Shown here piece by piece: positions 1 through 15,966 of a DNA stretch of 16,827 nucleotides; position 1 is the stretch's first letter, and each line of letters begins with the position of its first letter. The DNA is from Acidimicrobiales bacterium (GTDB lineage: Bacteria; Actinomycetota; Acidimicrobiia; Acidimicrobiales; VFJN01). The position numbers and the translations under genes are program-made. The stretch spans positions 1 through 16,827 of the forward strand of contig JAFGPU010000317.1 in NCBI GenBank assembly GCA_016936035.1, in the 5' to 3' direction. The notes below the pieces were generated by a model. It was not told the DNA's origin. It made no database searches and saw nothing but the letters and a program-made list of their open reading frames with translations.

Positions 1-1707
1 ACGGGTGTCGACGAGAGCGTCATCGAGGAGCTGGCGCTCATCAAGACGCTGCGGGGCATCGTCGACTGGGTCGACGACCACCGCGACGACCCGGCCGTGG
101 CCGGGGACGGTTCGCCGGGCGCCGCCGGCCGGGGCGTGGGGGAGCACGCCTCACCGGCGGCGTCCGCCGTGCCCGCCGCCGGGCCGAAGGCTTCTGCCGT
201 CGCACCGGCCCCGGTGGCGGCGTCCACCCCGCAGCGCTACGTGCCATGCCTGGTCGAGCTGCCGGCGGCTGCCACCGGCGCCTCCGAAGCGGCCGCAGGG
301 GTCGCCGGCCTCGTGGTGGCGGTGGTCGACGACAGCACCGGCGTCGCCGACCGGGTCGCCACCCGGCTCGGTGCGGCGGGCGCGACCGTGGTGCGCGTCC
401 GCGCGGACGAACCGGTGCCCGCCGGCGTCCACACCGTCGTCGACCTCACGGCCCTGGCGCCGGCCGCGGGTGCGACCACGACCGCCGTGATCGATCAGTT
501 CACGCGCCTGCGGACCGCCACACAGGCCGGCGCCGCCCGGATCGTGGTGGTGACCGGGTCGGGAGGCCACCTGGGGCTGGGCGGCACCCCGCCCGGCGCC
601 GACCTCGTGGCCGTCGGCGCCGCCGCGCAGGGCATGGTCCGCACCTTCGCACGCGAGCTGCCCTCGGTGGCGACGCGGCTGGTCGACGTCGACGTGTCCG
701 CCGGCGCCGACGACGTCGCCGAGCGCATCCTCGTCGAGCTCGTCGCCCGGGACACACCCATCGACGTGGGGGTCACCGCGACAGGGCGCCGCACGGTCAC
801 GATCGCGGCGCGGCCGCTCGACGTCGACGCCGGCCTCGAGTCGGGCATCGGCGAGGACCGCGACCTCGGCCCGGGATCGGTGGTCGTCGTCACCGGGGGC
901 GCCCGAGGCATCGGCGCCTTGCTCGCCATCGGCCTGGCCCGCAGCACGGGGTGCGGCATCGAGCTCATCGGCCGCTCGGCGCTGCCGCTCGCCGACGAGC
1001 CGCCCGACCTCGCGGGGGCGAGCGACGCCGTCGCCGTCCGCCAGGCGATCATCCGCCGCGGCGAGCTGAGCCGCCCGGCCGAGATCGAGTCGGCGACCGC
1101 CCGGGTGCTCGCCGACCGGGAGATCCGCGGAACCCTGGCGGCGCTTGCGCAGCACGCTGCGTTCGTCGCCTACCGGTCGCTCGACGTGTCCGACACCGAG
1201 GCGCTGGCCACGGCCCTCGACGAGATCCGGTCGACGCGGGGCCGGCTCGACGGGGTGGTCCACGCCGCCGGCGTGCGCGATGACAAGCTCATCCGCGACA
1301 AGTCCCCCGCATCGTTCGCCCGGGTGTTCGACACCAAGGTCGACCCGGCGATCACCATCGTGGAGTCCGTGGGCGATCGGGGATTCGTGCTGCTCTTCGC
1401 CAGCGTGTCCGGCGTGTTCGGCAACGTCGGGCAGGTCGACTACGCAGCGGCCAACAGCGCGCTCGACGGCATCGCCCGGCGTGCCCGCCAGGCGATGCCG
1501 GGCAGCAGGGTCGTGGCGGTCGACTGGGGGCCGTGGGCCGGGACGGGCATGGTGTCGCCCGAGCTGGCGCGCGAGTACGAGCGGCGGGGCGTCGGGCTGA
1601 TCGACCCCGTCGCGGGCGTCGACGCTGCCCTGGCAGAGCTGCGAGCCGGCGCGCCCGAGCCCCAGGTCGTCGTCATGTGCGCCCGGCCCGACGTCATGGG
1701 GGCCTGA
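1..1707 (+). CDS. Iterative type I PKS/PUFA-like synthase, C-terminal part (ACP end + ketoreductase), 5' truncated by window
   Basis: The reading frame is open from base 1 to a TGA at 1705-1707 (568 residues visible), so the start lies before the window. The first ~25 residues (ending EELALIKTLRGIVDWV) look like the last helix of an acyl carrier domain of the PfaA type. An Ala/Pro-rich linker (about 26-75) follows, then a structural sub-domain of the reductase (about 80-285), then the catalytic ketoreductase: NADPH motif TGGARGIG at residues 298-305, HAAGVRDD near 421-428, catalytic Ser468, Tyr481 and Asn485 in the S-x12-Y-x3-N pattern. The helical insert between the nucleotide motif and the catalytic core (RRGELSRPAEIE...) is typical of PUFA-synthase and heterocyst-glycolipid-type KRs rather than modular PKS. 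Its expected role is NADPH reduction of the beta-keto group on an ACP-bound chain. KS and AT domains are expected upstream but are not seen. It is followed after 2 nt by the second synthase gene. Confidence 0.9.
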   Translation, partial: TGVDESVIEELALIKTLRGIVDWVDDHRDDPAVAGDGSPGAAGRGVGEHASPAASAVPAAGPKASAVAPAPVAASTPQRYVPCLVELPAAATGASEAAAGVAGLVVAVVDDSTGVADRVATRLGAAGATVVRVRADEPVPAGVHTVVDLTALAPAAGATTTAVIDQFTRLRTATQAGAARIVVVTGSGGHLGLGGTPPGADLVAVGAAAQGMVRTFARELPSVATRLVDVDVSAGADDVAERILVELVARDTPIDVGVTATGRRTVTIAARPLDVDAGLESGIGEDRDLGPGSVVVVTGGARGIGALLAIGLARSTGCGIELIGRSALPLADEPPDLAGASDAVAVRQAIIRRGELSRPAEIESATARVLADREIRGTLAALAQHAAFVAYRSLDVSDTEALATALDEIRSTRGRLDGVVHAAGVRDDKLIRDKSPASFARVFDTKVDPAITIVESVGDRGFVLLFASVSGVFGNVGQVDYAAANSALDGIARRARQAMPGSRVVAVDWGPWAGTGMVSPELAREYERRGVGLIDPVAGVDAALAELRAGAPEPQVVVMCARPDVMGA

Positions 1708-1709
1708 CC

Positions 1710-4700
1710 GTGGCCAGCGAGCCCGTCGCCATCGTCGGCATGGCCGGGATCTTCCCCGGCGCGCCCGACCTCTCCGCCTTCTGGGACAACCTGGTCGCGG
1801 GGGTCGACGCCATCACCGACGTGCCGGCGGACCGCGTCGACCCCGTGTTCTTCGAGCCGCGCCCCACCGGGCCCGACCGCTTCTACTGCCGCCGCGGCGG
1901 GTTCATCGACCCGGGAGTCCCCTTCGATCCGTCCGACTTCGGCATCATGCCGGTGGCCGCCGCGGGCACCGAGCCGGACCAGCTGCTCGCCCTGGCGACG
2001 GCGGCACGGGCACTGGCGGACGCCGGCTACGTCGAGGGCGTACCCGACCCCCGGCGGGTCGGGGTGGTGATCGGTCGCGGTGGCTACCTCACTCCGGCGA
2101 CCGCCCGGCTCGAGCAGCGGGTGCGCACCGCCCACCAGCTCGTCACCTGCGTGCGCGAGCTCGTGCCCGACCTGGGGGACGACCAGCTCGACGCCATACG
2201 CGACCAGTTCCAGCAGGCGCTGGGGCCGTCGCACCCCGAGGCGTCGATCGGGCTGGTGCCCAACCTGGTGGCGTCACTGGTGGCCAACCGACTCGACCTC
2301 CAGGGCCCGGCGTACACGCTCGACGCCGCGTGCGCGAGCTCGTTGCTGGCCGTGGCCCAGGCCGTCACCGAGCTCGCTGCCGGGCGGTCCGACCTGATGC
2401 TCGCGGGCGGCGTCCACCACTGCCACGACGTCACGTTGTGGAGCGTGTTCTCGCAGCTCAAGGCGCTCAGCCCCACAGGCGTGATCCGGCCCTTCGACCG
2501 GGACGCCGACGGCATCCTCATCGGCGAGGGCACCGGCATCGTCGTCCTGAAGCGGCTGGCCGACGCCCGTCGCGACGGCGACCGCGTCTACGCCGTCATC
2601 CGGGGCACCGGCGTGTCGAGCGACGGCCGGGCCGCCACCCTCATGAGCCCGGCGAGCAAGGGGCAGGTGCTGGCGATCGAGCGCGCCTGGGACGCGGCCG
2701 GCCTCGACCCGGCGACCGTCGGGCTGATCGAGGCGCACGGCTCGGCCACCCGCACCGGCGACAGCGTCGAGATCGCCACCCTGCGCCACGTTTTCGAGCG
2801 TGGTGGCGACGGTCGGCAGGCCCCGGTGGGCCTGGGCTCGGTGAAGTCCAACATCGGGCACGCCATGCCCGCCAGCGGGATCGCCGGCCTCATCAAGTCC
2901 GCCCTCGGGCTGCACCACGGCATCATCCCGCCCACGCTGCACTGCGACGACCCGCACCCCGACCTCGCCCCGAGCCGGTTCGAGGTGGTGACCGAGGCAC
3001 GCGGCTGGCCCGGAGGGGGCGCCGACGGGGGACCGGGCGATCGGGCGCGCCGGGTGGGCATCAACGCGTTCGGCTTCGGCGGCATCAACGCGCACGTCAT
3101 CCTCGAGGCGCGGGATCCCGACGTTGCAGGTGCCCTGCCGTACGTGGGGCGCTCGTCGGCGCACGACCGCGACCGGGGCGAAGACGACGAGCCACCGGTG
3201 CTCCGGTGGGGGCGCCCGCGACGGCGCCGACCCGACGACGCCACCGGTGATGCGGTGCCGCACGAGGGGACCCGCCTGTTCGTGTGCGCAGCCGACGACC
3301 TGGTCGATCTCGCCGCCCGGCTCGAGGACACCGACGCCGTGCTCGCCGGGACCTCGCTCGCCGAGGTCGACGAGCGGGGGCCCGTGCGCCTGGCGATCGC
3401 CGAGCCCACCCCCAAGCGCCTCGAGCTCGCCCGCAAGGTCGTGGCGCGCGGGCAGGCGTGGCGGGGACGCAACGACGTCTGGTTCGCGCCGGAGGGCCTG
3501 GTCACCGCCGGCGGGAAGATCGCGTTCGCCTTCCCGGGCATCGAGCCGACCTCGGAGGTCGACGTCGACGACGTGTCCCGCCACTTCGGCGTCGAGAGCG
3601 AGCGCATCGACCGCACGTCCGACCTCGAGCGCCAGGGAGCCAACATCATCTACGTCGGCCGGTTGCTCACCGAGGCGCTCGGCCACCTGGGGATCGAGCC
3701 CGACGTGGTCGTCGGGCACAGCCTCGGCGAGTGGACGGCGATGCTGGTGTCGGGATCGGTCACGCGCGAGGCGATCGACCGGTTCGTCCACGGCATCGCG
3801 GACGGCGACATGGTCCTGCCCGACCTCGTGTTCCTGGCGCTCGGCTGCGGTGTCGACGTGGCCGAGGCCGCCATCGCCGATCTGCCCGACATCGAGGTGT
3901 CGCACGACAACTGCCCGCACCAGGTCATCGTGTGCGGCACGGAGCAGTCGGTGGCGGTCGCGCAGGACCGGTTGAAGGCCCAGCGCGTGATGGGCCAGGT
4001 GCTGCCGTTCCGCACGGGGTTCCACACACCGATGTTCGAGCGCTACCTCCAGCCCTTCGAGGATGCGCTCGGCACGTTGCCGCTCCACCGGGGCTCCATT
4101 CCGATCTACTCGTCGGTGAGCGCGCGGCGCTTCCCGGCCGACGAGGAGGGCATGCGCGACCTGGGCCGGCGCCTCTACGTCGAGCGGGTCCGGTTCCGCG
4201 AGCTGGTCGAGAACCTCTACGACGACGGCGTGCGCATCTTCGTGCAGCCGGGCCTCGGCAGCGTCGGCGGGTTCGTCGGCGACACCCTGCACGACCGCGA
4301 CCACCTTGCGGTGCCTGCCGCGGTGGCCAAGCGGTCGGGCATGGCCCAGCTGTCCCGGGTGGCGGCCGCCCTGTTCGTCGAGGGCGCGGACGTCCCTCTC
4401 GGCCGGCTGGTCACCCCGCGACCCGGGGTCGACCGCGCCGGGCTCCCCGCGCCCGGGCCGGTGCGGCCGGCGGCGCCGCGGCCGGCGTCTCCGCCTCCGA
4501 CTGGGTCCGATCGGCCGGCTGTCCTGCGGTTCGACTCGTCGCTCGTGCGGGGCGGGCTCCGTCCGCTCGAGCGCCCGGTGCCCGCGGAGACGGGCCCGCT
4601 CCCCGACGACGCCAGCGCGTGGGGCGGACCGGTCGGCGAGGAGTTCCGCGCCACCCTGCGGGCGGTCGAGGACGCCGGGCGCGAGGTCATGGCCGTGCTC

Positions 4701-6344
4701 GAACGTGCGCCGGGCCGCCCGGCCCGGTGGCGCGCGCCGGCGCGCAACGGCGCGGTGCAGCCGGTGACCGGCGCTGCGCCGGTGGCATCGGCTCCGGTCC
4801 CGGGAGCACCGTCCACGCCGAGCGCGGTCGCGGAAGGGCCGTCGACGGCGGGTCCGGGCACAGGCACGCCGATCACCACCCGCCAGCGCCCGGAGCGCCA
4901 CCACGAGCGGCGCCGCCTGTCGCTCGCCGAGGTGCCCGAGCTGCTCGACCACGCGTTCTTCGTCCAGCGGGAGGGCACGGGCACGGTGCGCGACCGGTTC
5001 CCCGTGGTGCCCATGACGATGATGATCGACATGTTCGTCGACACGGCCGCCCGGCTGGGCGCCGGGCGGGTCGTCGTCGGCCTGCAGAACGTGCGGGCGT
5101 TGCGGTGGTTGGCGGTCGAGCCGGCCGTCGAGGTCGACATCACGGCCGTGGTCGAGGCGCCCGACCGGGTGAAGGTGGCCATCGAGGGCTACGCGCGGGC
5201 GACCGTGCTGCTCGCCGAGCGCTATCCCGACCCGCCCCCGCCCGACACTGCGCCGCTCACCGACGAGCGGCCGCCCCCGCACTCGGCCCGCGACCTGTAC
5301 GACCAGCGGTGGATGTTCCACGGCCCGGGCTACCAGGGCGTGACCGGGATGCACGCGATGAGCGCCGATGGGCTGCGGGCCACCGTCACCGCGCGGCCGG
5401 CGCCCGGGGCGCTGCTCGATGCCGCCGGTCAGCTGCTCGGGTACTGGATCGAGGCCAACTCGACCGAGGATCGCATCGCGCTGCCGATGCGCATCGACCG
5501 CATCGACTTCTACGGCCCCCACCCGGAGCCGGGTGCCGAGCTCGGGTGCGTCGTCCGCTTCACCGAGGTCAACGAAGTCGATGCCCGGGGCAACGTCGAC
5601 CTGGTGCGCGACGGGCGGCTCTGGGCGCGGCTCACGCAGTTCATCGACCGCCGGTTCGAGAGCACCAACGCGGTGTTCAAGGTCATGACCTTCCCGGAGG
5701 AGAACCTCCTCGCCGAGCGTCGCGACGGCTACTGGTACATGGACGAGCACTGGCGGTCGAGCGCGAGCCGCGACCTCGTGGCCCGCCGGTACCTCGGCGA
5801 AGAGGAGCGCGACGAGTACTTCGCGCTGACGCCCAAGGCCCAGCGTGACTGGATCCTGGGCCGGATCGCCGTCAAGGACGCCGTGCGCGACGTGCTCTGG
5901 CAGCGGGGAGCCGGGCCGATCTTCCCGTTGGAGGTGCGGGTCGGTCACGACGACCGGGGCCGGCCCGTGGTCGACGCGCCGGGGGGCGAGCGGCTGTCCG
6001 TGTCGCTGTCCCATCGGGCAGGCGTGGCGGTGGCCAGCGTGGTGGTCGACGACGACGCCGGCATCGACGTCGAGACGATCGAACCACGCAGCGACACGTT
6101 CGCCGCCATGTGCATGACCGCGGACGAGATGGCCCTCGGGGCGGGGATCGGTCACGACGCATGGGTGGCCCGGGTGTGGACGGTCAAGGAGGCCGCCGCC
6201 AAGTCCGACGGCACCGGCCTGCAGGGACGGCCCAAGGACTTCGTCATCCGTCGCGTCGACGGCGACTGGACGCTGGTGAACGACCGGTGGGTCCACACGA
6301 CACAGGAAGGTGATCTCATTGTCAGCACCGTCAGAGACCGCTAG
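1710..6344 (+). CDS. Iterative type I synthase: KS-AT-linker-DH-phosphopantetheinyl transferase
   Basis: 1544 residues, GTG start at 1710 preceded by GGGGG with 7 nt spacing and 2 nt after the previous stop; the KS opening VAIVGMAGIFPG begins at residue 6. KS (about 4-470): catalytic Cys208 (DAACASS), His343 (EAHGSATRTGD, where EAHGTGT is usual) and His384 (KSNIGH). The motif GLVPNLVASLVANRLDLQGP ahead of the Cys is typical of the PUFA/Hgl-like iterative KS clade. AT (about 603-890): GHSLGE nucleophile Ser671 and His772 (GFHTP). The oxyanion GQG motif is replaced (PGIEPT, 609-614) and Ile696 sits where malonyl-binding ATs have Arg. Pro/Ala-rich linker about 890-1070. DH (about 1075-1340): His1081 (LLDHAFF), PVVPMTMM, FHGPGYQG and catalytic Asp1237 (LLDAAGQ), a double hot-dog PKS dehydratase. 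C-terminal Sfp-type PPTase (about 1370-1535): SLSHRAG, Asp1453/Glu1455 (GIDVE), Trp1490 and Lys1493-Glu1494 (WTVKEA). The fused PPTase probably activates the operon's own ACPs. No enoylreductase is seen. Confidence 0.93.
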   Translation: MASEPVAIVGMAGIFPGAPDLSAFWDNLVAGVDAITDVPADRVDPVFFEPRPTGPDRFYCRRGGFIDPGVPFDPSDFGIMPVAAAGTEPDQLLALATAARALADAGYVEGVPDPRRVGVVIGRGGYLTPATARLEQRVRTAHQLVTCVRELVPDLGDDQLDAIRDQFQQALGPSHPEASIGLVPNLVASLVANRLDLQGPAYTLDAACASSLLAVAQAVTELAAGRSDLMLAGGVHHCHDVTLWSVFSQLKALSPTGVIRPFDRDADGILIGEGTGIVVLKRLADARRDGDRVYAVIRGTGVSSDGRAATLMSPASKGQVLAIERAWDAAGLDPATVGLIEAHGSATRTGDSVEIATLRHVFERGGDGRQAPVGLGSVKSNIGHAMPASGIAGLIKSALGLHHGIIPPTLHCDDPHPDLAPSRFEVVTEARGWPGGGADGGPGDRARRVGINAFGFGGINAHVILEARDPDVAGALPYVGRSSAHDRDRGEDDEPPVLRWGRPRRRRPDDATGDAVPHEGTRLFVCAADDLVDLAARLEDTDAVLAGTSLAEVDERGPVRLAIAEPTPKRLELARKVVARGQAWRGRNDVWFAPEGLVTAGGKIAFAFPGIEPTSEVDVDDVSRHFGVESERIDRTSDLERQGANIIYVGRLLTEALGHLGIEPDVVVGHSLGEWTAMLVSGSVTREAIDRFVHGIADGDMVLPDLVFLALGCGVDVAEAAIADLPDIEVSHDNCPHQVIVCGTEQSVAVAQDRLKAQRVMGQVLPFRTGFHTPMFERYLQPFEDALGTLPLHRGSIPIYSSVSARRFPADEEGMRDLGRRLYVERVRFRELVENLYDDGVRIFVQPGLGSVGGFVGDTLHDRDHLAVPAAVAKRSGMAQLSRVAAALFVEGADVPLGRLVTPRPGVDRAGLPAPGPVRPAAPRPASPPPTGSDRPAVLRFDSSLVRGGLRPLERPVPAETGPLPDDASAWGGPVGEEFRATLRAVEDAGREVMAVLERAPGRPARWRAPARNGAVQPVTGAAPVASAPVPGAPSTPSAVAEGPSTAGPGTGTPITTRQRPERHHERRRLSLAEVPELLDHAFFVQREGTGTVRDRFPVVPMTMMIDMFVDTAARLGAGRVVVGLQNVRALRWLAVEPAVEVDITAVVEAPDRVKVAIEGYARATVLLAERYPDPPPPDTAPLTDERPPPHSARDLYDQRWMFHGPGYQGVTGMHAMSADGLRATVTARPAPGALLDAAGQLLGYWIEANSTEDRIALPMRIDRIDFYGPHPEPGAELGCVVRFTEVNEVDARGNVDLVRDGRLWARLTQFIDRRFESTNAVFKVMTFPEENLLAERRDGYWYMDEHWRSSASRDLVARRYLGEEERDEYFALTPKAQRDWILGRIAVKDAVRDVLWQRGAGPIFPLEVRVGHDDRGRPVVDAPGGERLSVSLSHRAGVAVASVVVDDDAGIDVETIEPRSDTFAAMCMTADEMALGAGIGHDAWVARVWTVKEAAAKSDGTGLQGRPKDFVIRRVDGDWTLVNDRWVHTTQEGDLIVSTVRDR
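6304..6318 (+). promoter_or_regulatory. Extended Shine-Dalgarno deciding a TTG start for the ACP gene
   Basis: AGGAAGGTGATC at 6304-6315 matches the extended anti-Shine-Dalgarno complement (AAGGAGGTGATC) at 10 of 12 positions, with the last eight bases perfect, and lies 3 nt before TTG at 6319. The GTG at 6310 in the same frame lies inside this site, so it is unlikely to be the start. The whole site lies inside the 3' end of the synthase coding sequence. Confidence 0.65.
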
Positions 6345-6669
6345 GGCCACCACTCCCGACGTCGAGGTCGACGGCATCGTCGCGACGATCGCCCGCCTCG
6401 TGCACGAGGTCATCGGCGAGGATCTCGACATCGACCTCGACGTCACGGCCGATAGCTCCTTCAGCGAGGACATCGAGCTGGAGAGCATCGAGTTCGTCGC
6501 GCTCGGCGAGCAGCTGCAGCTCACCTACGGCGAGAAGATCGACCTGGTCGGATGGTTCGGCGAGCTCGACCTCGACGAGATCATCGACCTGACCGTCGGC
6601 GAGCTGGCGGCGTTCATCCGGGCCTGCCTGGTCGACGACGACCGACCGGGGGTGCAGCAGGGTGCCTGA
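6319..6669 (+). CDS. Free-standing acyl carrier protein
   Basis: 116 residues from a TTG start, chosen because of the strong extended ribosome-binding site just before it; a GTG three codons upstream is the alternative. The gene overlaps the end of the synthase by 26 nt. The fold is that of an acyl carrier protein: an acidic four-helix pattern with the phosphopantetheine attachment Ser56 in ELESIEFV, preceded by SSFSEDI and followed by ALGEQLQ. The usual DSL around the serine is ESI here, a form I associate with dedicated ACPs beside acyl-activating or lipid synthase genes. After 4'-phosphopantetheinylation, probably by the PPTase domain of the preceding gene, it would carry a chain for the synthases, the hydrolase or a transfer step. 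At about 116 residues it is longer than a minimal ACP (about 80) because of an N-terminal extension and a short C-terminal tail. Confidence 0.9.
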   Translation: MSAPSETARATTPDVEVDGIVATIARLVHEVIGEDLDIDLDVTADSSFSEDIELESIEFVALGEQLQLTYGEKIDLVGWFGELDLDEIIDLTVGELAAFIRACLVDDDRPGVQQGA

Positions 6670-7612
6670 GCTCGTCGCCCGCGACGGCGTGCGGTTCCAC
6701 CACCAGAGGCTGGGTCGGAGCGGCGGCGAGGTCGTCGTGATGCTGCACGGCATGCTCGTCGACAACCTGTCGAGCCTGTACCTGACCCTGGCGCCCGTGC
6801 TCGTCGACGAGATGGACGTGGTGCTCTACGACCAGCGCGGCCACGGGCGCAGCGCACGGCCGGCGGACGGCTACACGATCGAGGACGCGGTCGCCGACCT
6901 GATCGCGCTGCTCGACGAGCTGGGCGTCGACGCGCCCGTGCACCTGCTGGGCAACAGCTACGGGGCACTGGTGGCGATCGAGGCCGCGCTCGCTCATCCC
7001 GACCGGGTGAGCAGCCTGGTGCTCATCGAGGCGCACGTCGCGGTCGAGGGATGGGGCGACCACGTGGCTCACGACCTCGAACTGGCCGGGTTCGGTCTGG
7101 GCGAGGCCGACGTGCAGCAGTGGCTCGACGAGTTCGGCGGACGCAAGCTCAACCGCCTGGCCCGCAAGGTCGAGGCCCTGATCCACGACACGACGATCGT
7201 CGACGACCTGCGGGCGGCACGACCGCTGCCGGCCGACGCGCTGCGCGGGCTGGACCTGCCGGCAATGGCGATCTACGGCGAGCACTCCGACGCCATCGAC
7301 CGGGCGCGCGACCTCGAGTCGCTGCTGCCGCGGCTGGAGATGAACGTCTTCGTCGACTGCGCCCATTCCGTGCTGTTCGAGGCCACCCGCACGGTGCGCG
7401 CCGTGGTGGCCGACTGGTACACGCGGCTGCGGGTGGGCGAGGCCGTCGAGTCCCGCTCGGTGAAGGTCGCGGTGGGCGAGCAGGAGGGTGAGGGCGCCGA
7501 GCACCAGGACCACGTGGAGTTCTACAAGGCAGAGCTCGAGCGACGCATGGGCTCGGCGGTCACCGGCACGGCGCTGCGCGTCGCGGCCCGGCCGCCCGGC
7601 GGGGGCCGCTGA
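6662..7612 (+). CDS. Alpha/beta-fold hydrolase (possible thioesterase or chain-release enzyme)
   Basis: 316 residues, GTG start overlapping the ACP stop by 8 nt, with GGGGG at 6648-6652 upstream. It is a clear alpha/beta hydrolase: oxyanion segment LHG at 28-30, DQRGHGRS at 57-64, nucleophile elbow GNSYG with Ser99, acid probably Asp210 (YGEHSD), and catalytic His235 (CAHSVLFE). The core ends near residue 256; a polar, charged tail of about 60 residues follows and is not part of the usual fold. No signal peptide is visible, so it should be cytoplasmic. Its place directly after an ACP and a polyketide synthase makes hydrolysis or transfer of an ACP-bound thioester a sensible role, since the operon shows no thioesterase domain in the visible synthases. 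The fold alone does not set the substrate; esterase, lactonase or other C-O or C-C hydrolase activity remains possible. Confidence 0.88.
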   Translation: MPELVARDGVRFHHQRLGRSGGEVVVMLHGMLVDNLSSLYLTLAPVLVDEMDVVLYDQRGHGRSARPADGYTIEDAVADLIALLDELGVDAPVHLLGNSYGALVAIEAALAHPDRVSSLVLIEAHVAVEGWGDHVAHDLELAGFGLGEADVQQWLDEFGGRKLNRLARKVEALIHDTTIVDDLRAARPLPADALRGLDLPAMAIYGEHSDAIDRARDLESLLPRLEMNVFVDCAHSVLFEATRTVRAVVADWYTRLRVGEAVESRSVKVAVGEQEGEGAEHQDHVEFYKAELERRMGSAVTGTALRVAARPPGGGR

Positions 7613-8845
7613 ATGGGCCGCTTCCTCTTCGTGGTGCCGCCGCTCGCCGGCCACACCAACCCGACGGTCTCCGTCGGGCACGAGCTCGGGCGACGTGGCC
7701 ACGCGGTCGCGTGGACCGGGCACCCCGAGGTGGTGCCCGACCTGATCGGCCCGGGTGCGAGGTTCCTGCCCGTCGACGACGCGGTGCCCGCCGAGGTCGT
7801 GGCGGCGGTGGCCGAGCGATCTTCGGGGCTGCGCGGCCCCGCGGCGCTGCGCTTCCTGTGGCGCGACGTCCTCATGCCCCTGGCACGCACGATGACCCCC
7901 GGCGTCGAGCAGGCCGTGGACGGGTTCGCTCCCGACGTGTTGGTGGTCGACCAACAGGCCCTCGCGGGCGCGGCGGTGGCCGAGCGTCGGGGCCTGCCGT
8001 GGGCCACCTCGGCCACGACCTCCGCCGAGCTGACCGATCCCCTGGCCACGATGGGCAGGGTGGGCGAGTGGGTGCGGGGCCTGATGGTCGACTACCTGCA
8101 CGAGGCGGGGCTGACCCGGCGGGCCGCCGACGCGATCGACCCGCGGTTCTCGCCCCACCTGCTCGTGGCGTTCACGACGGCGGCCCTGGTGGGCCCGCTG
8201 CCGATGCCCGACCACTACGCCCTGGTGGGACCCTCGTTCGCCGGGCGGCACGACCCGACGCCGTTCCCCTGGGAGTGGCTCCGCTCCGGCACCCCGCTGG
8301 TGCTGGTCTCGCTGGGCACGCTCAACTGGCAGGACGGTGCGCGCTTCTTCGCCCGGGCGGTCGAGGCGCTGGAGGGCATGGACGCCCAGGGCGTGGTTGT
8401 CGCCCCGCCCGACCTGGTCGAGCGCGTCCCGGCGAACGTGCTCGTGCGACCGCGCGTACCGCAGCTGACCCTGCTGCCGCGCACGTCCGCAGTGATCAGC
8501 CACGGCGGGCACAACACGGTGTGCGAAGCGCTCGCTCACGGGCTGCCGCTGGTGGTGGCGCCGATCCGTGACGATCAGCCGATCATCGCCGAGCAGGTGG
8601 TCGCCGCCGGGGCCGGCGTGCGGGTCCGCTTCGGGCGGGTGGGGGCCGACGGCCTGCGAGCTGCCCTCGACACCGTCATGGGCGACCCCTCGTACCGCCG
8701 GGGGGCCGAACGGGTGCAGCGCTCGTTCACCGAGGCGGGGGGCGCGCCGGCGGCCGCCGAGCGTCTCGAGGGGCTCCTCGGACGGCGGGCCGCGGGCGCT
8801 GCGTCCCGGGGCGCGATCAGGAAGGGGACGGCGACATGGAACTGA
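7613..8845 (+). CDS. GT1-family glycosyltransferase (MGT / zeaxanthin-glucosyltransferase type)
   Basis: 410 residues, ATG start directly abutting the hydrolase stop (TGAATG), with GGGGG seven bases before it. It has the two-domain GT-B architecture: N-terminal acceptor domain with GHTNP (His14 as catalytic base) and VVDQQA (Asp112/Asp113 region), then the C-terminal nucleotide-sugar domain with LVSLGT at 231-236 and the GT1 signature around 295-322 (SHGGHNTVCEALAHG, then LPLVVAPIRDDQ, including the terminal Asp-Gln pair that contacts the sugar). Length is normal for the family. These enzymes move a sugar from a nucleotide donor to a hydroxyl of a hydrophobic acceptor such as a macrolide, sterol or carotenoid. 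In this operon the likely acceptor is the polyketide or acyl product. Donor sugar cannot be read from sequence, and no deoxysugar biosynthesis gene is present in the window. Confidence 0.93.
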   Translation: MGRFLFVVPPLAGHTNPTVSVGHELGRRGHAVAWTGHPEVVPDLIGPGARFLPVDDAVPAEVVAAVAERSSGLRGPAALRFLWRDVLMPLARTMTPGVEQAVDGFAPDVLVVDQQALAGAAVAERRGLPWATSATTSAELTDPLATMGRVGEWVRGLMVDYLHEAGLTRRAADAIDPRFSPHLLVAFTTAALVGPLPMPDHYALVGPSFAGRHDPTPFPWEWLRSGTPLVLVSLGTLNWQDGARFFARAVEALEGMDAQGVVVAPPDLVERVPANVLVRPRVPQLTLLPRTSAVISHGGHNTVCEALAHGLPLVVAPIRDDQPIIAEQVVAAGAGVRVRFGRVGADGLRAALDTVMGDPSYRRGAERVQRSFTEAGGAPAAAERLEGLLGRRAAGAASRGAIRKGTATWN

Positions 8846-9888
8846 CGACCGATGGTGGGCCGCTCGTGGGCGACGGCGGGCGCGCCGAGGTCGGTCCCGG
8901 CGGCGTCGCGGCGCGCGCCGTGGCCGAGAGCGCCAGGGCGGCATTGGTGGACGATCCCATCCTGGCCGAGCCGCCGAGGCCCGCGGTCGACGGGTACGGG
9001 CCGGGGGCCTTCACCTGCCGGCTCGCCGGCGGCGGCCACGGGGCCTGGGCCGCACCCGTCGTGGTGCGGGTGGCGCCGCTGCCGGACCTGCGCCGCGAGC
9101 GGGCCTGGCACCGGTTCTGCGGTGACCACGGGTGTGCGGTGCCCGACGTCGTCGGCCTGGTGGAGTCCGACCGCGGGGACCTCGGGGCCCTCGTTGTCGC
9201 CCAGGGCGGATCGGTGTCGTTGATGGAGCAGTTCGGGCAGAACCCGACCGCGATCCCGGTCCTGCTGCGGTGGATGGCCGAGGTGCACGCCCGGGTGCAC
9301 GGCCTGCCCGCCGAGGCGGCGCCCCCTGGGCTCGCCAGCGCTCCGCTCGACCACCTCGATCAACTGCTGGCGCGCACCGGTCTCCACGGCCGGTTCGCCG
9401 AGGAGCGAGCCTGGCTCGACGCGCATGCGCCGCCCCCGGCGGCGCGACCGGTGGTCTGCCACGGCGACATGCAGCCCGCGTCGGTGCGGCTCGAGCCGGA
9501 CGAGCCCGACCGCGCCCAGGTGGTCAACTGGTCGGCGGCCCGCGTCGCCGACGCCGAGTACGACGTGGCGGTGACGTTGCTCATGTTCTGGTCCGTGCCG
9601 TACCTGGCCGAGGGCATCGGGCAGCGCAAGATGCTCAAGACGCTGCGCGACGCGATCACCGACGGCTACCGCGCCGCGTACGAGGCCGTCCCGGGCCGCA
9701 GGCCGCTGCACGACGAGCGCCTGCGGTACTGGGGAGCCTTCCATGCACTCACGTGGTCGGTCCGGCTGGCAGCGGCGGATGCCGCCGGGGGCCCCGCCGA
9801 TCCGTGGGACCCGGTGGCGCTCGTCCGGCACGTGGCGTCGTACCGCAAGGACCTCGGTCGACGCTTCGCCCGTCTGGCGCGTGGGTGA
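8836..9888 (+). CDS. Aminoglycoside-phosphotransferase-fold protein with degenerate active site
   Basis: 350 residues, ATG start overlapping the glycosyltransferase stop by 10 nt and preceded by GAAGGGG with an 8 nt spacer. The fold is that of the APH/choline-kinase-like family: a small N-terminal lobe with a beta strand VVVRVAP (75-81), helical middle, then the catalytic-loop sequence CHGDMQPASV (208-217) and VVNWSAARVADAEYD (229-243). His209 and Asp211 of the HGD motif are kept, but the Asn of HGDxxxxN is Ser216, and the metal-binding Asp of the VIDW motif is Asn231. Both usual Mg-ligand side chains are therefore changed. It may be a pseudokinase or scaffold, use a different metal geometry, or have a non-kinase role. 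In its operon position it could act on, bind or protect against the glycosylated product; a resistance role cannot be claimed. Confidence 0.8.
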   Translation: MELTTDGGPLVGDGGRAEVGPGGVAARAVAESARAALVDDPILAEPPRPAVDGYGPGAFTCRLAGGGHGAWAAPVVVRVAPLPDLRRERAWHRFCGDHGCAVPDVVGLVESDRGDLGALVVAQGGSVSLMEQFGQNPTAIPVLLRWMAEVHARVHGLPAEAAPPGLASAPLDHLDQLLARTGLHGRFAEERAWLDAHAPPPAARPVVCHGDMQPASVRLEPDEPDRAQVVNWSAARVADAEYDVAVTLLMFWSVPYLAEGIGQRKMLKTLRDAITDGYRAAYEAVPGRRPLHDERLRYWGAFHALTWSVRLAAADAAGGPADPWDPVALVRHVASYRKDLGRRFARLARG

Positions 9889-9892
9889 ACGG

Positions 9893-11812
9893 GTGACCCG
9901 TGCCCGCCGCCTCCGGCGGGTCCGGGCAGCCGCCGCGCCGCTCGTGGTCGCGGTGGTGCTGGGCCACGGGGCGGTGCTGCGCCGCCGGCTCTCCGCGATC
10001 GACGTCCTCGGGCCCGGGAGCGAGCGCGGAGACGGACCCGAGGACGAGGAGGTCGACGGGTGCGACGGCGAGCCGGTGGAGCCGACGTACCGCCTGGTCA
10101 CCGCGGCGGGCGTGTCGGTCGACCAGGCAACCGTGCGGGCCGCCCGCCGGTACGCCCAGCGCCGGGGCCTCGATGTGGTCGACCTCGTCCCCGCCGACCT
10201 GCCGGTGGAGCCCTTGCTGGCGCTGGCGTGGCGCATCGTGCCCGGCACGTTCGCCGCGGACCCGCTGGCGACGGGCTTCGGGGCCGACCACGCGCTCGTC
10301 GTCACCGCGGACGTGCTCGCCCGGGCACGCGTCCGCCACCGCGAGGGACTGAGCGCGGTCGACATGCACCTCCTGACGAAGACCCTCAAGCGGTTCGCCC
10401 CCCGGTCGATGGGCCACGTGGTGGCGCCGGGCCTGCGGGCGCGGCCGGCCGAACCGGCGGCGCACCACCGCGCCGGCGTCGAGTCCGCCTACGCCATGGG
10501 CACGCCCTTCATGCTCGCCCTGCGCGCGAGCGGGCTGGCGGTGCTGGGCGGTCGGGCGGTCACCGGTCGGGCCTGGGGCGTGGCCGGCGTCGTCGCGTTC
10601 GGCGCCCAGGCGTGGCTGGCGACCGCCGGCACGCCGTTCCAGCCGCGCGACCTGGCCGTGCGGGTGCCGGTGCGCGTCCCCTGGGCGTTGTGCGACCGGT
10701 CGAGGGCGCTACGGGTGGGGCGGCGCCCGGGCGTCGACGCGGCTGTCGCCGAGCGGCGCGACCGCTACCGGCTGCAGCTCGCGGACGGCATCGAGAAGCT
10801 CTTCGAGCCGCGCCGGTCCGACTGCCCGTCGTGTGGCGACCACCGGCTGACGGTGCGCGTGCGCACAGGGGACATGCTCCAGGGCAAGCCGGGCACCTTC
10901 AGCCTGGAGCAGTGCCGTGGCTGTGGTCACGTCTTCCAGAACCCCCGGCTGACCGTCGAGGGCCTCGAGTTCTACTACGGCGATTTCTACGACGGGGTCG
11001 GCGAGGAGGAGATGGAGCTGCTCGGCGCCACCGGGCGCGAGCAGTACGGGGCGCGGGCGCGGTTCGTGGCCGCGCACGGCACGCCGCGCCGCTGGCTCGA
11101 CGTCGGCGGCGGACACGGGCACTTCAGCCTGGTGGCCCGCGGGATGTGGCCAGCGGCCCGGTTCGACGTCATCGACCTGGCCGAGAGCGTCGAGGTCGCG
11201 GAGCGGCGGGGGTGGGTCGACCGCGCCGAGCGGGGCCTCTTCCCGGACCTCGCGCCCCGGCTCGCCGGTGCGTACGACGTCGTGAGCATGCACCACTACC
11301 TCGAGCACACCCGCGATCCGGGGGCCGAGCTCGACGCAGCCGCCGTGGTCCTCGAGCCCGGCGGCCTGCTGTCGATCGAGATGCCCGATCCGGAGTCGTC
11401 GCTGGCGCGGGTGATGGGTCGGTGGTGGGGCCCGTACCTGCAACCGCAGCACCTCAACATGGTCCCGCTGCGCAACCTGGAGGCGATGCTGGTCGAGCGG
11501 GGGTTCTCGATCGTGGCCCGCCAGCGCGCCGAAGCGCACGAGCCGTGCGACTTCGGGTTCGCGGCCTACATGGTGGCCAACCGCCTCGGGCCGCCGTCGG
11601 ACGTGCCGTGGCGGCCGGCGCCCTCTCGATGGTCGGACCTGCGCCGCAGCGTCGGGTTCAGCGCCGGGATGCCGGTGATCGGACTGGGGCTGGCCCTCGA
11701 TCACCTGATGGCGCCGCTGGTGCCGGTGCTCGGCGCCTCGAACGCGTACCGGGTGCTCGCACGCCGGGCACCGCGGGCGTCGACCCGGCGAGCAGCGGCA
11801 CGGCGGGCCTAG
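9893..11812 (+). CDS. Fusion: unrecognised membrane-associated N-terminal region + zinc ribbon + class I SAM methyltransferase
   Basis: 639 residues from GTG at 9893, 4 nt after the previous stop; an in-frame GTG at 9881 inside the preceding gene is the alternative start, with no better ribosome site. Residues 1-310 are not recognised: a hydrophobic stretch at 15-29, an acidic spacer near 43-63, a mixed alpha/beta-looking part (66-180), then two hydrophobic stretches at about 203-220 and 228-246 that could enter the membrane. A zinc ribbon follows: CPSCG (Cys311, Cys314) and CRGCG (Cys341, Cys344). The methyltransferase core has SAM motif LDVGGGHG at 402-409, an acidic residue after the second strand (VIDLAE), MHHYLEHTRDP, and an LEPGGLLSIEMPD post-I region. 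This ribbon-methyltransferase layout is common in sugar or polyketide tailoring C- and O-methyltransferases. It probably methylates the glycosylated product or its sugar. The extreme C-terminus is an Ala/Arg-rich tail encoded by a tandem repeat. Confidence 0.85.
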   Translation: MTRARRLRRVRAAAAPLVVAVVLGHGAVLRRRLSAIDVLGPGSERGDGPEDEEVDGCDGEPVEPTYRLVTAAGVSVDQATVRAARRYAQRRGLDVVDLVPADLPVEPLLALAWRIVPGTFAADPLATGFGADHALVVTADVLARARVRHREGLSAVDMHLLTKTLKRFAPRSMGHVVAPGLRARPAEPAAHHRAGVESAYAMGTPFMLALRASGLAVLGGRAVTGRAWGVAGVVAFGAQAWLATAGTPFQPRDLAVRVPVRVPWALCDRSRALRVGRRPGVDAAVAERRDRYRLQLADGIEKLFEPRRSDCPSCGDHRLTVRVRTGDMLQGKPGTFSLEQCRGCGHVFQNPRLTVEGLEFYYGDFYDGVGEEEMELLGATGREQYGARARFVAAHGTPRRWLDVGGGHGHFSLVARGMWPAARFDVIDLAESVEVAERRGWVDRAERGLFPDLAPRLAGAYDVVSMHHYLEHTRDPGAELDAAAVVLEPGGLLSIEMPDPESSLARVMGRWWGPYLQPQHLNMVPLRNLEAMLVERGFSIVARQRAEAHEPCDFGFAAYMVANRLGPPSDVPWRPAPSRWSDLRRSVGFSAGMPVIGLGLALDHLMAPLVPVLGASNAYRVLARRAPRASTRRAAARRA

Positions 11813-11985: not shown

Positions 11986-12603
11986 TCAGTGGCGGGCGGT
12001 CGACACCGGCACCGGCAGGTCGAACCCGGCCGCCAGTTGAGCGAATGCGTCGTCGACGACCTCGACCAGCGGCCCGGGGCGGCCGCGCTCCTGCCAGACG
12101 GACAGGCTGACCTTGAGGGCGCCCACGGCGGCGGCGACCACCAGCGCCGGGTAGGGGTCGAGGTCGGGGTCCAGTCCGGTCCGCCGGGCGATCTCGCCCG
12201 CCAGCTCGCGTTCCACCTCGGTGAACCGGGCGGCGCGCCTGGCCGCCAGCGAGGGGTGCCGCTGGGTGAGGCGGTGGCGTGCCCACAGCTCGTCGGCGGT
12301 CGGCTCGAGGCGGGTGGCCGCCGCGACGGCCATGCCCCGCAGCGCCTCGAGGGGCGACTCGTCCGCCGGGCGGTCCAGGAGGTCGGTGAGCAGCTCCGAC
12401 GCCTCGGAGGGCGCGACACCGGCGATGGCGTCGTCCTTCGAGGCGAAGTAGTTGAAGAACGTTCGGGCCGACACGTCCGCCGCGTCGGCGATCGCCTCGA
12501 CGGTGACGCCGTCGGGGCCGAGCTGCTCCGCCAGCCGCAACGCGGCGGACGACAGCGCCCGCCGTGTCTCCGCCTTCTTGCGCTCGCGCCGTCCTTCGCT
12601 CAT
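11986..12603 (-). CDS. TetR-family transcriptional regulator
   Basis: 205 residues, ATG start at 12603 overlapping the exporter stop by 4 nt (ATGA), so its translation is coupled to the exporter. The N-terminus carries the TetR helix-turn-helix: GVTVEAIADAADVSARTFFNYFASKDD at about residues 32-58, shown here by its key parts VTVEAIADAADVS, the recognition-helix segment ARTFFNYF and the KDD that follows. Residues 70-200 form the variable all-helical ligand and dimer domain, ending in a short polar tail. Length is normal for the family. The usual role is repression of the adjacent transporter gene until a small molecule binds; the candidate operator is the nested palindrome before the exporter. 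The ligand is unknown. It may sense the product of the convergent synthase operon, but only proximity suggests that. Confidence 0.93.
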   Translation of the reverse strand: MSEGRRERKKAETRRALSSAALRLAEQLGPDGVTVEAIADAADVSARTFFNYFASKDDAIAGVAPSEASELLTDLLDRPADESPLEALRGMAVAAATRLEPTADELWARHRLTQRHPSLAARRAARFTEVERELAGEIARRTGLDPDLDPYPALVVAAAVGALKVSLSVWQERGRPGPLVEVVDDAFAQLAAGFDLPVPVSTARH

Positions 12604-14282
12604 CGTTCGCCCCCGTTCGCCCTGCCCACCGCCTCGGCCGGCGACGCGTCGCCGGATTGAGGCGCCCCGTTGTCGCGGTCGCGCCCGACCGGTGCCTCCC
12701 CGTAGTCCACCACGATCGCGGGGTCGCTGACAGCCGCCATGGTGTCCTCGGGGATCGAGGCCTCGACGGGCACCGTGGACGACGCCTCCGCCTCGGCGCG
12801 GGCCGATGCCGACGTCGTCCGCAGGGCCGTCTCCCGGAGCAACCAGGTGAGGAGGAAGCCGACGACGAGCAGGGGGACGGCGTAGCGGAACACCATGGTG
12901 ATGGCGTCGGCGAAGGCGCCCGCGAGCAGAGCCGCCTCGTCTGCCGGCAGCGCGCGGATCTGCTCGGGGGTCATGCCGGTGGGAGCGGCGCCGAGCAGGT
13001 CGGTCAGGCGGGCGCTGAACAGGGCGCCGAAGAGGGCCACGCCCACCGAGCCGCCCACGGCCCGGAAGAACGTGATGGTCGAGGTGGCGACGCCGAGGTC
13101 CTCGACCGGGGCTTCGTTCTGCACGGCCAGGACCAGGATCTGCATGACCATGCCGATGCCGGCACCGAGGAGGGCCATGTAGGCGCCCGACTCCCAGCGG
13201 CTCGAACCGGTGTCGAGGGTCGACAGCAGCAGCATCGCCATGCTGGTGACGGCCATGCCGGCGATGGGGAAGCGCCGGTAGCGGCCGGTGCGGGTGATGA
13301 TCTGCCCGGCGGTGATGGAGGCGACGAGCATCCCACCCATGACCGGGACCAGGAGGAGCCCCGAGTTGCTGGCCGAAGCCCCGTTCGCCACCTGGAGGAA
13401 GGTGGGCAGGTAGGTGATGGCGCCGAACATGGCGACACCGACGATGAAGCTGACCGCGGCGGCGGTGGTGAAGGTGCGGAGGCGGAACAGGCGCAGCGGC
13501 ATGGCGGGCTCGGCCACCCGCCGCTCGACCACCACGAAGCCCAGCGCCAGCACGACGGCGGCGACGCCGAGGCCACGGATGACGGGCGATCCCCAGTCGT
13601 ACTCGGTACCGCCCCAGGTCGTGAGCAGCACGAGGCACACGATGGCGGCCGACAGCAGGGCGGTGCCGACCCAGTCGATGCGCACCTGGCGTCGACGGAC
13701 CGTCCGGGGGAGGACCGCGCTGGTGACGAACAGCGCGAGGATGCCGAGGGGCACGTTGACGTAGAAGACCCAGCGCCACGACAGGTGGTCGGTGAGGAAG
13801 CCGCCGAGCAACGGTCCCGCCACGCTGGCCACGCCGAAGACGGCGCCGAAGTAGCCCTGGTAGCGGCCGCGCTCGCGGGGGCTGACCACATCGGCGATGA
13901 GGGCCATCGCCAGCACGATGAGGCCGCCCGCTCCCACGCCCTGCACGGCGCGGAAGGCGATGAGCTGGCCCATCGACGTGGCGACGCCCGACAGGACGCT
14001 GCCCAACACGAAGATGCAGATGGCCACCTGGAAGAGGCGCTTGCGACCGTAGAGGTCGCCGAGCTTGCCGAACAGCGGGGTCGAGACCGTCTCGGCCAGC
14101 AGGTACGCGGTGACGACCCACGACAGGTGGTCGAGGCCGCCGAGGTCGCCGACGATCGTGGGCAGCGCCGTGGCGACGATCGTCTGGTCGATCGCGGCCA
14201 GAAGCATGCCGAGCATGATCCCGGAGAAGACGACCAGCACCTGCCTGTGCGACAGGGCGGCGGAGGGGGCGTGTGCATCCAT
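12600..14282 (-). CDS. MFS drug:H+ antiporter, DHA2 (EmrB/QacA) family exporter
   Basis: 560 residues, ATG at 14282 with GAGG about 8 nt upstream on the minus strand. It has the length and motifs of the 14-TM DHA2 exporters: motif D1 around AAIDQTIVATALPTI (29-43, Asp32), motif A GKLGDLYGRKR (72-82), motif B RAVQGVGAG (111-119) and antiporter motif C GVASVAGPLLGG (150-161). Hydrophobic segments run up to about residue 500, followed by a cytoplasmic, Ala/Glu/Asp-rich tail of about 55 residues that is longer than in typical relatives. It should sit in the cytoplasmic membrane and exchange protons for an amphipathic or hydrophobic compound. It is the first gene of a two-gene operon with the TetR-family regulator. 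Export of the neighbouring pathway's product is a sensible but unproven role. Confidence 0.94.
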   Translation of the reverse strand: MDAHAPSAALSHRQVLVVFSGIMLGMLLAAIDQTIVATALPTIVGDLGGLDHLSWVVTAYLLAETVSTPLFGKLGDLYGRKRLFQVAICIFVLGSVLSGVATSMGQLIAFRAVQGVGAGGLIVLAMALIADVVSPRERGRYQGYFGAVFGVASVAGPLLGGFLTDHLSWRWVFYVNVPLGILALFVTSAVLPRTVRRRQVRIDWVGTALLSAAIVCLVLLTTWGGTEYDWGSPVIRGLGVAAVVLALGFVVVERRVAEPAMPLRLFRLRTFTTAAAVSFIVGVAMFGAITYLPTFLQVANGASASNSGLLLVPVMGGMLVASITAGQIITRTGRYRRFPIAGMAVTSMAMLLLSTLDTGSSRWESGAYMALLGAGIGMVMQILVLAVQNEAPVEDLGVATSTITFFRAVGGSVGVALFGALFSARLTDLLGAAPTGMTPEQIRALPADEAALLAGAFADAITMVFRYAVPLLVVGFLLTWLLRETALRTTSASARAEAEASSTVPVEASIPEDTMAAVSDPAIVVDYGEAPVGRDRDNGAPQSGDASPAEAVGRANGGER

Positions 14283-14332
14283 GAACCGACCTCGGGGAGG
14301 GGCGCGCCGGGTCTGGCGCAGCGGTCTCCGGG

Positions 14333-14360
14333 AGCCTAGCTAAAGATGCAGTGTGTGCAA
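14333..14360 (-). promoter_or_regulatory. Candidate promoter of the exporter-regulator operon
   Basis: On the minus strand, TTGCAC (14360-14355) and TAGGCT (14338-14333) are separated by 16 nt, close to a sigma-70-type -35/-10 pair, and lie about 50 nt before the exporter ATG. They sit in the only clearly AT-rich island of the 138-nt gap (14283-14420) between kinase and exporter. The rest of the gap shows nothing further that I can support. Confidence 0.45.
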
Positions 14361-14376
14361 CTTTGCAGAAGTGCAT
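14346..14376. promoter_or_regulatory. Candidate TetR operator: nested TGCA palindromes
   Basis: TGCAACTTTGCA at 14356-14367 is an inverted repeat (TGCAA/TTGCA, 2-nt centre). It is nested inside an outer pair ATGCA (14346-14350) and TGCAT (14372-14376) with almost the same centre. Four TGCA words occur within 29 nt at 8-9 nt steps. The site overlaps the proposed -35 box, so a bound regulator would block RNA polymerase. Confidence 0.5.
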
Positions 14377-14420
14377 TTTCCACCGATGGCACGCTGCCCG
14401 GTTCTCTCGCGACGACCGCG

Positions 14421-15953: not shown

Positions 15954-15966
15954 GTGATCACCGCGC

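What the first reader, a model, noticed from the sequence alone, without database searches (positions are those of the whole stretch)
1..11812. Possibly undescribed operon for a glycosylated, methylated polyketide or lipid built by an iterative PUFA/Hgl-like synthase pair
Two iterative synthase proteins, a free ACP, a hydrolase, a GT1 glycosyltransferase, an APH-fold protein and a ribbon-type methyltransferase are packed without gaps. PUFA-like KS and KR sequences together with a macrolide-type glycosyltransferase do not match any cluster I know. Known relatives (PUFA synthases, heterocyst glycolipid synthases, enediyne PKS) have other tailoring sets.
Basis: partly seen in the sequence, partly recalled or inferred. 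Interest (0 to 1): 0.75.

Follow-up and report, generated by a model that had tools for sequence, protein, structure and literature searches.

The report
Widespread glycolipid-type operon, product unknown
This is the downstream part of a gene set, seen in many bacteria, that probably builds a long fatty chain and attaches a sugar to it; the chain-building enzyme type was catalogued in 2011 but I found no report of what it makes.

Summary
Window 1-11812 is a tightly packed operon: the end of an ACP-KR protein, KS-AT-DH-PPTase, a free ACP, an alpha/beta-hydrolase, a GT1 glycosyltransferase, an APH-fold protein and a Zn-ribbon methyltransferase. The window is a whole contig of a fragmented MAG. 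The missing front of gene 1 most likely lies on contig C146 (ER-KS-AT, ending inside an ACP). The synthase pair (fused PfaD-A plus PfaBC-PPTase) has the layout of Type M "secondary lipid synthases" listed in 2011 without a product. The cassette ACP-hydrolase-GT1 recurs in 22 of 80 related genome loci, in Actinomycetota, Bacteroidota and Myxococcota among them. So it is not a one-off cluster, but ten literature searches gave no product. Most likely it makes a long-chain, largely reduced acyl or alkyl glycoside. New details: the APH-fold protein belongs to a cluster-linked family with degraded kinase motifs, and the methyltransferase joins a sugar-C-methyltransferase-like half to a membrane domain weakly resembling GT2 synthases.

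The parts
1..1707 (+). 3' part of synthase gene 1 (ACP tail, residues 1 to about 27, then KR at about 880-1539); the 5' part most likely lies on contig C146 (L098:3311-8440: FabK/NMO-type ER, KS, AT, start of ACP)
   Evidence: Pfam KR 6.1e-32; TIGR02813 PfaA partial match; in the 11 intact homologues on which both ends could be placed, 22-27 residues are missing between C146 end and window start, 26 in five of them (same ACP copy); C146 domains
1710..6344 (+). synthase gene 2: KS (about 1719-2945), AT (about 3666-4244), DH (about 5235-5663), PPTase (about 6060-6245)
   Evidence: Pfam hits; KS Cys motif and AT GHSLGE present; PPTase motifs P1a RGRP and P1b' VSLSH
6310..6669 (+). free acyl carrier protein, attachment site ELESIEFV
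   Evidence: Pfam PP-binding 2.6e-4; an [ED]S[IV][ED] site is kept in all 24 sequences of the alignment
6662..7612 (+). alpha/beta-hydrolase, likely thioesterase-like release or editing enzyme
   Evidence: Pfam Abhydrolase_1 4.6e-23; conserved position in relatives
7613..8845 (+). GT1 (MGT-like) glycosyltransferase
   Evidence: Pfam EryCIII-like_C, UDPGT; NCBIfam TIGR01426 178.5 bits, below its cut-off of 260; solved relatives include oleandomycin glycosyltransferase and YjiC
8836..9888 (+). APH-fold protein with degraded kinase motifs (HGD kept, Asn site Ser216, Asp site Asn)
   Evidence: Pfam APH 7.8e-15; family motif counts
9893..11812 (+). fusion protein: membrane domain of about 305 residues (weakly GT2-like fold) plus Zn-ribbon (C311, C314, C341, C344) and SAM methyltransferase (residues about 303-629)
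   Evidence: Pfam Methyltransf_23; cysteines invariant in 58 sequences; models with pLDDT 92.6 and 91.2; structure matches

Best explanation
The operon encodes a Type M-like secondary lipid synthase with a glycolipid tailoring cassette. Gene 1 (ER-KS-AT-ACP-KR, split by the assembly) and gene 2 (KS-AT-DH-PPTase) work as one iterative complex. The built-in PPTase activates the ACPs, the two KS/AT sets extend the chain from malonyl units, and KR, DH and the FabK/PfaD-type ER process it, so that a long, largely reduced chain, possibly with a few hydroxyls or double bonds, is made. The chain passes to the free ACP and is released by the alpha/beta-hydrolase. The GT1 enzyme then adds one sugar to a hydroxyl or carboxyl group, and the membrane-anchored Zn-ribbon enzyme methylates the sugar or head group at the membrane. 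The APH-fold protein is more likely a binding or scaffolding protein than an active kinase. Shown by sequence: domains, order, conservation. Inferred: that C146 is the front of gene 1, chain length and chemistry, order of steps, sites of glycosylation and methylation, role of the APH-fold protein.
Against: No product is known to me for a cluster of this type, so a glycosylated polyketide with retained oxygen functions is not excluded. No sugar-activation gene lies in the part of the operon held. C146 and the window share no overlapping end sequence, so their adjacency is inferred. The cassette is not universal: L032, L037 and L041 sit in the same KS2 clade and have downstream sequence without GT1, and the order-mate G062, with a more distant KS2, has no cassette (only a 50-bit GT1 hit on the other strand). 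The only same-genus genome searched, G006 (95% complete), has no match to the methyltransferase, so the cluster is patchy.
Confidence: 0.62

Rival explanations
1. A glycosylated polyketide natural product (antibiotic-like) made by the same iterative pair, with the APH-fold protein and the neighbouring MFS pump as self-protection.
For: GT1 of the MGT/macrolide type; APH fold; an MFS transporter and a TetR gene lie next to the operon on the other strand.
Against: The MFS/TetR genes do not recur beside relatives (TetR in 0 of 80 loci, MFS only as a 50-bit hit in L081; one 98-bit MFS near the second cluster of G001); APH in 0 of 80 loci and its kinase motifs are degraded; a complete KR-DH-ER set argues for a reduced chain.
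Confidence: 0.2
2. A structural envelope glycolipid that works like heterocyst glycolipids, made under specific developmental or stress conditions (a sub-case of the best explanation).
For: Same super-group as the hgl and Azotobacter phenolic-lipid synthases: the KS1 clade and the Azotobacter KS (L051) fall in one 43-row group (support 92, not starred); Type N was discussed as a possible microcyst lipid in PMC3098273; the second, rearranged cluster of G001 has two FtsX-like permeases after gene 1.
Against: Synthase layout differs from hgl (Type F: hglC KS-CLF-AT, no DH, per PMC3098273); host biology unknown; no ABC exporter gene among the genes scanned in the window.
Confidence: 0.3
3. An enediyne-type or PUFA-type pathway.
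For: Shares PfaA-like KS/KR and a DH-PPTase end with those synthases.
Against: Two proteins with two KS and (on C146) an ER, not one KS-AT-ACP-KR-DH-PPTase protein; only one KS and one DH stretch in gene 2; the window PPTase has the P1b' and not the P1b or P0 motif.
Confidence: 0.03

Closest known systems
Type M secondary lipid synthase clusters (Shulse and Allen 2011, PMC3098273; Frankia, Actinosynnema, Renibacterium, Streptomyces avermitilis)
   Same: Fused pfaDA plus pfaBC with C-terminal PPTase (arrangement of the Renibacterium cluster as worded in PMC13291983), PPTase motifs P1a and P1b'; a MAG named Frankia alni (L015) has the same synthase end, cassette and methyltransferase
   Different: The window adds an APH-fold gene between GT1 and the methyltransferase; whether the 2011 Type M clusters all carry the GT1 cassette could not be checked (Figure 1 not held)
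Type N clusters (Chitinophaga, Chryseobacterium)
   Same: Same synthase pair and ACP-hydrolase-GT1 order in Chryseobacterium and Pedobacter loci L011, L012, L013, L025 (in L012 the ACP was found by tblastn only)
   Different: Doubled GT1 and two condensation/PapA-like proteins; no Zn-ribbon methyltransferase found
Heterocyst glycolipid (hgl, Type F) clusters
   Same: Iterative Pfa-like synthase; a sugar transferase (hglT) belongs to the hgl island (PMC11804610, passages)
   Different: Different synthase layout (no DH, KS-CLF-AT in hglC, per PMC3098273)
Azotobacter vinelandii Type P phenolic-lipid synthase
   Same: KS of L051 falls in the same 43-row group as the KS1 clade (support 92)
   Different: Works with type III PKS (PMC3098273); no ACP, hydrolase or GT1 hit in L051
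Sugar C-methyltransferases MtmC, TcaB9, KijD1
   Different: Extra membrane domain at the N-terminus; alignments end at chain residue about 269 of 394-418, so their last domain has no counterpart. UbiG-type methyltransferases score in between (21.3), so the substrate is not settled by the fold

Membership tests
Type M secondary lipid synthase | fused pfaDA: ER-KS-AT-ACP-KR in one protein | tested here: inconclusive
   Met in the four intact relatives scanned with Pfam (L009, L012, L026; G001:C61); in this genome only if C146 and the window are adjacent, which is inferred
Type M secondary lipid synthase | fused pfaBC-like protein ending in a PPTase | tested here: met
   KS-AT-DH-PPTase, 1544 aa
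Type M secondary lipid synthase | PPTase motifs of the type M-T group: x(G/D)xP and hShxH, no (F/S)NxSH, no hRxhLS | tested here: met
   Window: RGRP, VSLSH, no P1b, no P0. Over the 24 proteins that had the WxxKEAxxK motif (the others were not counted): P1a 22, P1b 0, P1b' 24, P0 4
Type M secondary lipid synthase | KS phylogeny with the 2011 Type M members | tested here: inconclusive
   Window KS2 groups with a MAG named Frankia alni and with Streptomyces (28 rows, support 97); the reference strains of 2011 were not in the tree
Heterocyst glycolipid (Type F) synthase | hglC KS-CLF-AT and no DH | tested here: not met
   Gene 2 has one KS, AT, a PS-DH domain and a PPTase
PUFA synthase (Types A, B, L) | PPTase motifs P0 and P1b | tested here: not met
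   Neither in the window PPTase
PUFA synthase (Types A, B, L) | curated NCBIfam model TIGR02813 (PfaA), cut-off 1010 bits | tested here: inconclusive
   189 bits for the gene 1 tail, 485 for gene 2, 684 for the C146 protein; gene 1 is split, so the whole protein could not be scored
Enediyne PKS | single KS-AT-ACP-KR-DH-PPTase protein (recalled) | tested here: not met
   KR and DH-PPTase are on two proteins, each relative with two KS and an ER
APH phosphotransferase (PF01636) | profile match | tested here: met
   55.7 bits, cut-off 23.2
APH phosphotransferase (PF01636) | catalytic Asp, metal-binding Asn and Asp (motif roles recalled) | tested here: not met
   Window: HGD kept, Asn site Ser, Asp site Asn. 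In 55 aligned proteins: catalytic Asp in 48, Asn site Asn in 1, Asp site Asp in 12
Zn-ribbon sugar C-methyltransferase | Zn-ribbon plus class I SAM fold | tested here: met
Zn-ribbon sugar C-methyltransferase | acts on an NDP-sugar | not testable with these tools
   Needs an enzyme assay
GT2 membrane synthases (hyaluronan/cellulose/chitin synthase) for the N-terminal 305 residues | GT-A fold with flanking membrane helices | tested here: inconclusive

The most novel reading that the evidence does not exclude
Type M and Type N secondary lipid synthases, catalogued in 2011 without products, are glycolipid synthases: a conserved cassette of a dedicated ACP, a hydrolase and a GT1 enzyme defines one family of undescribed long-chain glycosides shared by Actinomycetota, Bacteroidota and Myxococcota. 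In a lineage around Acidimicrobiales it is finished by a membrane-bound methyltransferase fused to a remnant GT2-like domain and by a kinase-dead APH-fold protein.
Probability: 0.4. Interest if true: 0.68.

Novelty: new member of a known kind. Interest (0 to 1): 0.45.

Why it matters
The Type M and Type N synthases were listed without products in 2011, and a 2026 paper still calls the Renibacterium one uncharacterised. Showing that relatives of this kind travel with one fixed cassette across phyla predicts a glycolipid, names the enzymes to assay, and points to cultured relatives (Streptomyces, Amycolatopsis, Kutzneria, Chryseobacterium, Pedobacter) in which the product can be sought. The degraded APH-fold family and the GT2-like/methyltransferase fusion are two specific enzymology questions.

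Tried and rejected
Considered and rejected: enediyne, PUFA and hgl identity (architecture and motifs); gene 1 as a complete ACP-KR protein (contig edge); the MFS/TetR and two-component genes as part of the cluster (opposite strand; MFS and TetR not conserved; the two-component genes were not searched in relatives beyond the gene-family table).

Led nowhere: no solved structure is a close sequence relative of the APH-fold protein (best E 0.018). Ten full-text searches gave no listing that names a product of a Type M or N cluster; I read passages or sections of four papers only (PMC3098273, PMC3848822, PMC13291983, PMC11804610), and the library holds only open-licence PMC papers, so absence is weak. 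The whole-protein model of the methyltransferase filled the structure list with its SAM domain, so the N-terminal 305 residues were predicted and searched alone; that gave hints only, and families absent from such lists are not excluded. (APH query in nine genomes of cluster carriers, 0 of 9) had no positive control.

Rows left out: in the KS tree 128 of 143 KS pieces were used; second and later KS copies in L070, L076, L079-L085 and L088, and third copies elsewhere, were dropped. There KS1/KS2 labels were given by score rank, so both KS of G001:C61 fall in the KS1 clade, one under the KS2 label; the tree tool flagged unusual composition in several rows, L011, L012, L013 and L036 among them. 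Gene tables cover 27 of the 80 loci plus the window. Alignments A2 and A3 used 57 of the 120 listed methyltransferase homologues; A1 used 16 of the 120 listed KS homologues. One search covers the 53 homologues, the window protein and the G001:C61 protein.
Full report
WHAT IS THERE. The window is the whole of contig C290 in a fragmented MAG (3.2 Mb, 555 contigs, 68% complete). Several close protein relatives are labelled Acidimicrobiales where a name is given, so the host is probably of that order; I did not test this with marker genes. On the + strand seven genes run from 1 to 11812: the tail of synthase gene 1 (ACP end, KR), gene 2 (KS-AT-DH-PPTase), a free ACP, an alpha/beta-hydrolase, a GT1 glycosyltransferase, an APH-fold protein and a Zn-ribbon methyltransferase. 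Neighbours overlap or lie within a few bases. On the other strand follow TetR, MFS, histidine kinase and response regulator genes.

THE MISSING FRONT OF GENE 1. Another contig of the same MAG, C146, carries an open frame that runs off its end with a FabK/NMO-type enoyl reductase, KS and AT and stops inside an ACP. The window begins inside an ACP. In the 11 intact homologues on which both ends could be placed on the same ACP copy, 22-27 residues are missing between them, 26 in five. The C146 KS falls among the KS1 domains of the intact clusters. The ends share no sequence, so the join is inferred. The gene 1 frames called in GT1-carrying relatives whose gene 1 is uncut are about 1900-2500 residues long; the four scanned with Pfam are ER-KS-AT-ACP-KR. 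A site pattern finds one or two ACPs in most of them and none in some.

HOW WIDESPREAD. Searching those 80 with the window proteins (tblastn, E 1e-5): ACP in 25, hydrolase in 30, GT1 in 22, methyltransferase in 10, APH in 0, TetR in 0, MFS in 1. The 22 GT1 loci are Streptomyces and Wenjunlia, Amycolatopsis, Kutzneria, Virgisporangium, a MAG named Frankia alni, another actinomycete MAG, Chryseobacterium, Pedobacter, a Myxococcales MAG, a delta-proteobacterial MAG and a MAG titled Proteobacteria. In 21 of 22 the order gene 2 - ACP - hydrolase - GT1 is kept on one strand; in L014 the cassette is inverted. The methyltransferase occurs in 9 of the 22 (in L009 the contig ends right after GT1). Among order-mates, 6 of 59 genomes, the host included, have a KS2 match at E 1e-100. 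Of the other five, three (G008, G011, G038) show hydrolase and GT1 in the same order after gene 2, with an ACP hit in two and an 81-residue gene in that place in G008; G014 is cut by its contig end; G062, the weakest match, has no cassette. In G008 my fetched stretch ends inside gene 1. A family-mate, G001, has one cluster of the same order (C36) and a second, rearranged one (C61). The only same-genus genome searched, G006, has no match to the methyltransferase. In the KS tree (quick method) the window KS2 lies in a 35-row clade (support 96), 27 of whose rows carry GT1. Of the other 8, L032, L037 and L041 have downstream sequence without GT1; L020, L024, L031, L033 and G014 are cut by contig ends.

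WHAT KIND IT IS. PMC3098273 (abstract, section 7 and passages read; figures not held) sorts Pfa-like clusters into Types A-T and lists Type M without product in Frankia, Actinosynnema, Renibacterium and S. avermitilis, and Type N in Chitinophaga and Chryseobacterium. [quoted passage not shown] That is the layout found here. The window PPTase has the P1a and P1b' motifs given for types M-T and neither P1b nor P0. PMC3848822 (passages and section 14 read) notes one type I PKS conserved in all Frankia strains studied; whether it is this one I could not check. Ten full-text searches, listed in Tried and rejected, gave no product.

TAILORING. The four Bacteroidota relatives carry two GT1-like units and two homologous proteins that in L012 match condensation/PapA-type acyltransferases; the deltaproteobacterial relative L026 has a leucine-carboxyl-methyltransferase-like gene and a hexapeptide-repeat protein after GT1. 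The constant core is thus ACP-hydrolase-GT1, with changing methyl or acyl finishing, which fits a glycolipid. This is inference from gene content.

THE APH-FOLD PROTEIN. The database search lists 53 relatives among the candidates scored. On aligned positions of 55 proteins the catalytic Asp is kept in 48, the metal-site Asn in 1, and the second metal-site Asp in 12, with Asn in the other 43 (motif roles recalled). Six of the 21 APH rows compared share the exact contig length with one of the 23 KS2 rows compared; five of those KS2 rows are among the nine best hits. Equal lengths are not proof of one contig, but six such cases make it likely that the family travels with this cluster. A more distant copy (35% identity) sits in the rearranged cluster region of G001. 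Elsewhere: 0 of 80 loci; in 59 order genomes a full-length match only in the host, and weak partial ones (E 2e-6 or worse) in eight others; 0 of 9 genomes of cluster carriers (no positive control). I read it as a probable pseudokinase; 12 of 55 retain the Asp, so activity in some members is not excluded.

VERDICT. Real, correctly described in its parts, and not ordinary macrolide or PUFA machinery; but it is one member of a widely conserved cluster kind whose product I could not find named.

Noticed in passing
L104 and L105 (G001:C61, about 4483-34356): A second, rearranged cluster in a family-mate: split KS and AT-DH genes without a PPTase hit, two Zn-ribbon fusion methyltransferases, two further methyltransferases, SDR and NmrA-like genes, an APH-fold gene (35% identity) and two FtsX-like permeases directly after gene 1.
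   Followed up: partly
L101 (G000:C141) and L096 (G000:C279): Two more copies of the membrane-domain/Zn-ribbon methyltransferase fusion in the same MAG, away from the operon (open frames of 655 and 643 codons).
   Followed up: partly
L011, L012, L013, L025: Bacteroidota versions carry a doubled GT1 and two condensation/PapA-like proteins downstream (Pfam run on L012 only).
   Followed up: partly
L098:1078-3115: A TetR gene and a secretory-lipase (LIP) gene lie just upstream of the ER-KS-AT gene on C146.
   Followed up: no
window 11986-16698, - strand: TetR (partial MftR-model match), MFS transporter, histidine kinase and OmpR-type response regulator; TetR and MFS are not conserved beside relatives.
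   Followed up: partly
G008:C1 and G001:C61 gene 1: Two ACP sites each with identical site sequence within the protein; tandem ACP repeats of this kind would be a plausible reason for the assembly break inside the ACP.
   Followed up: no
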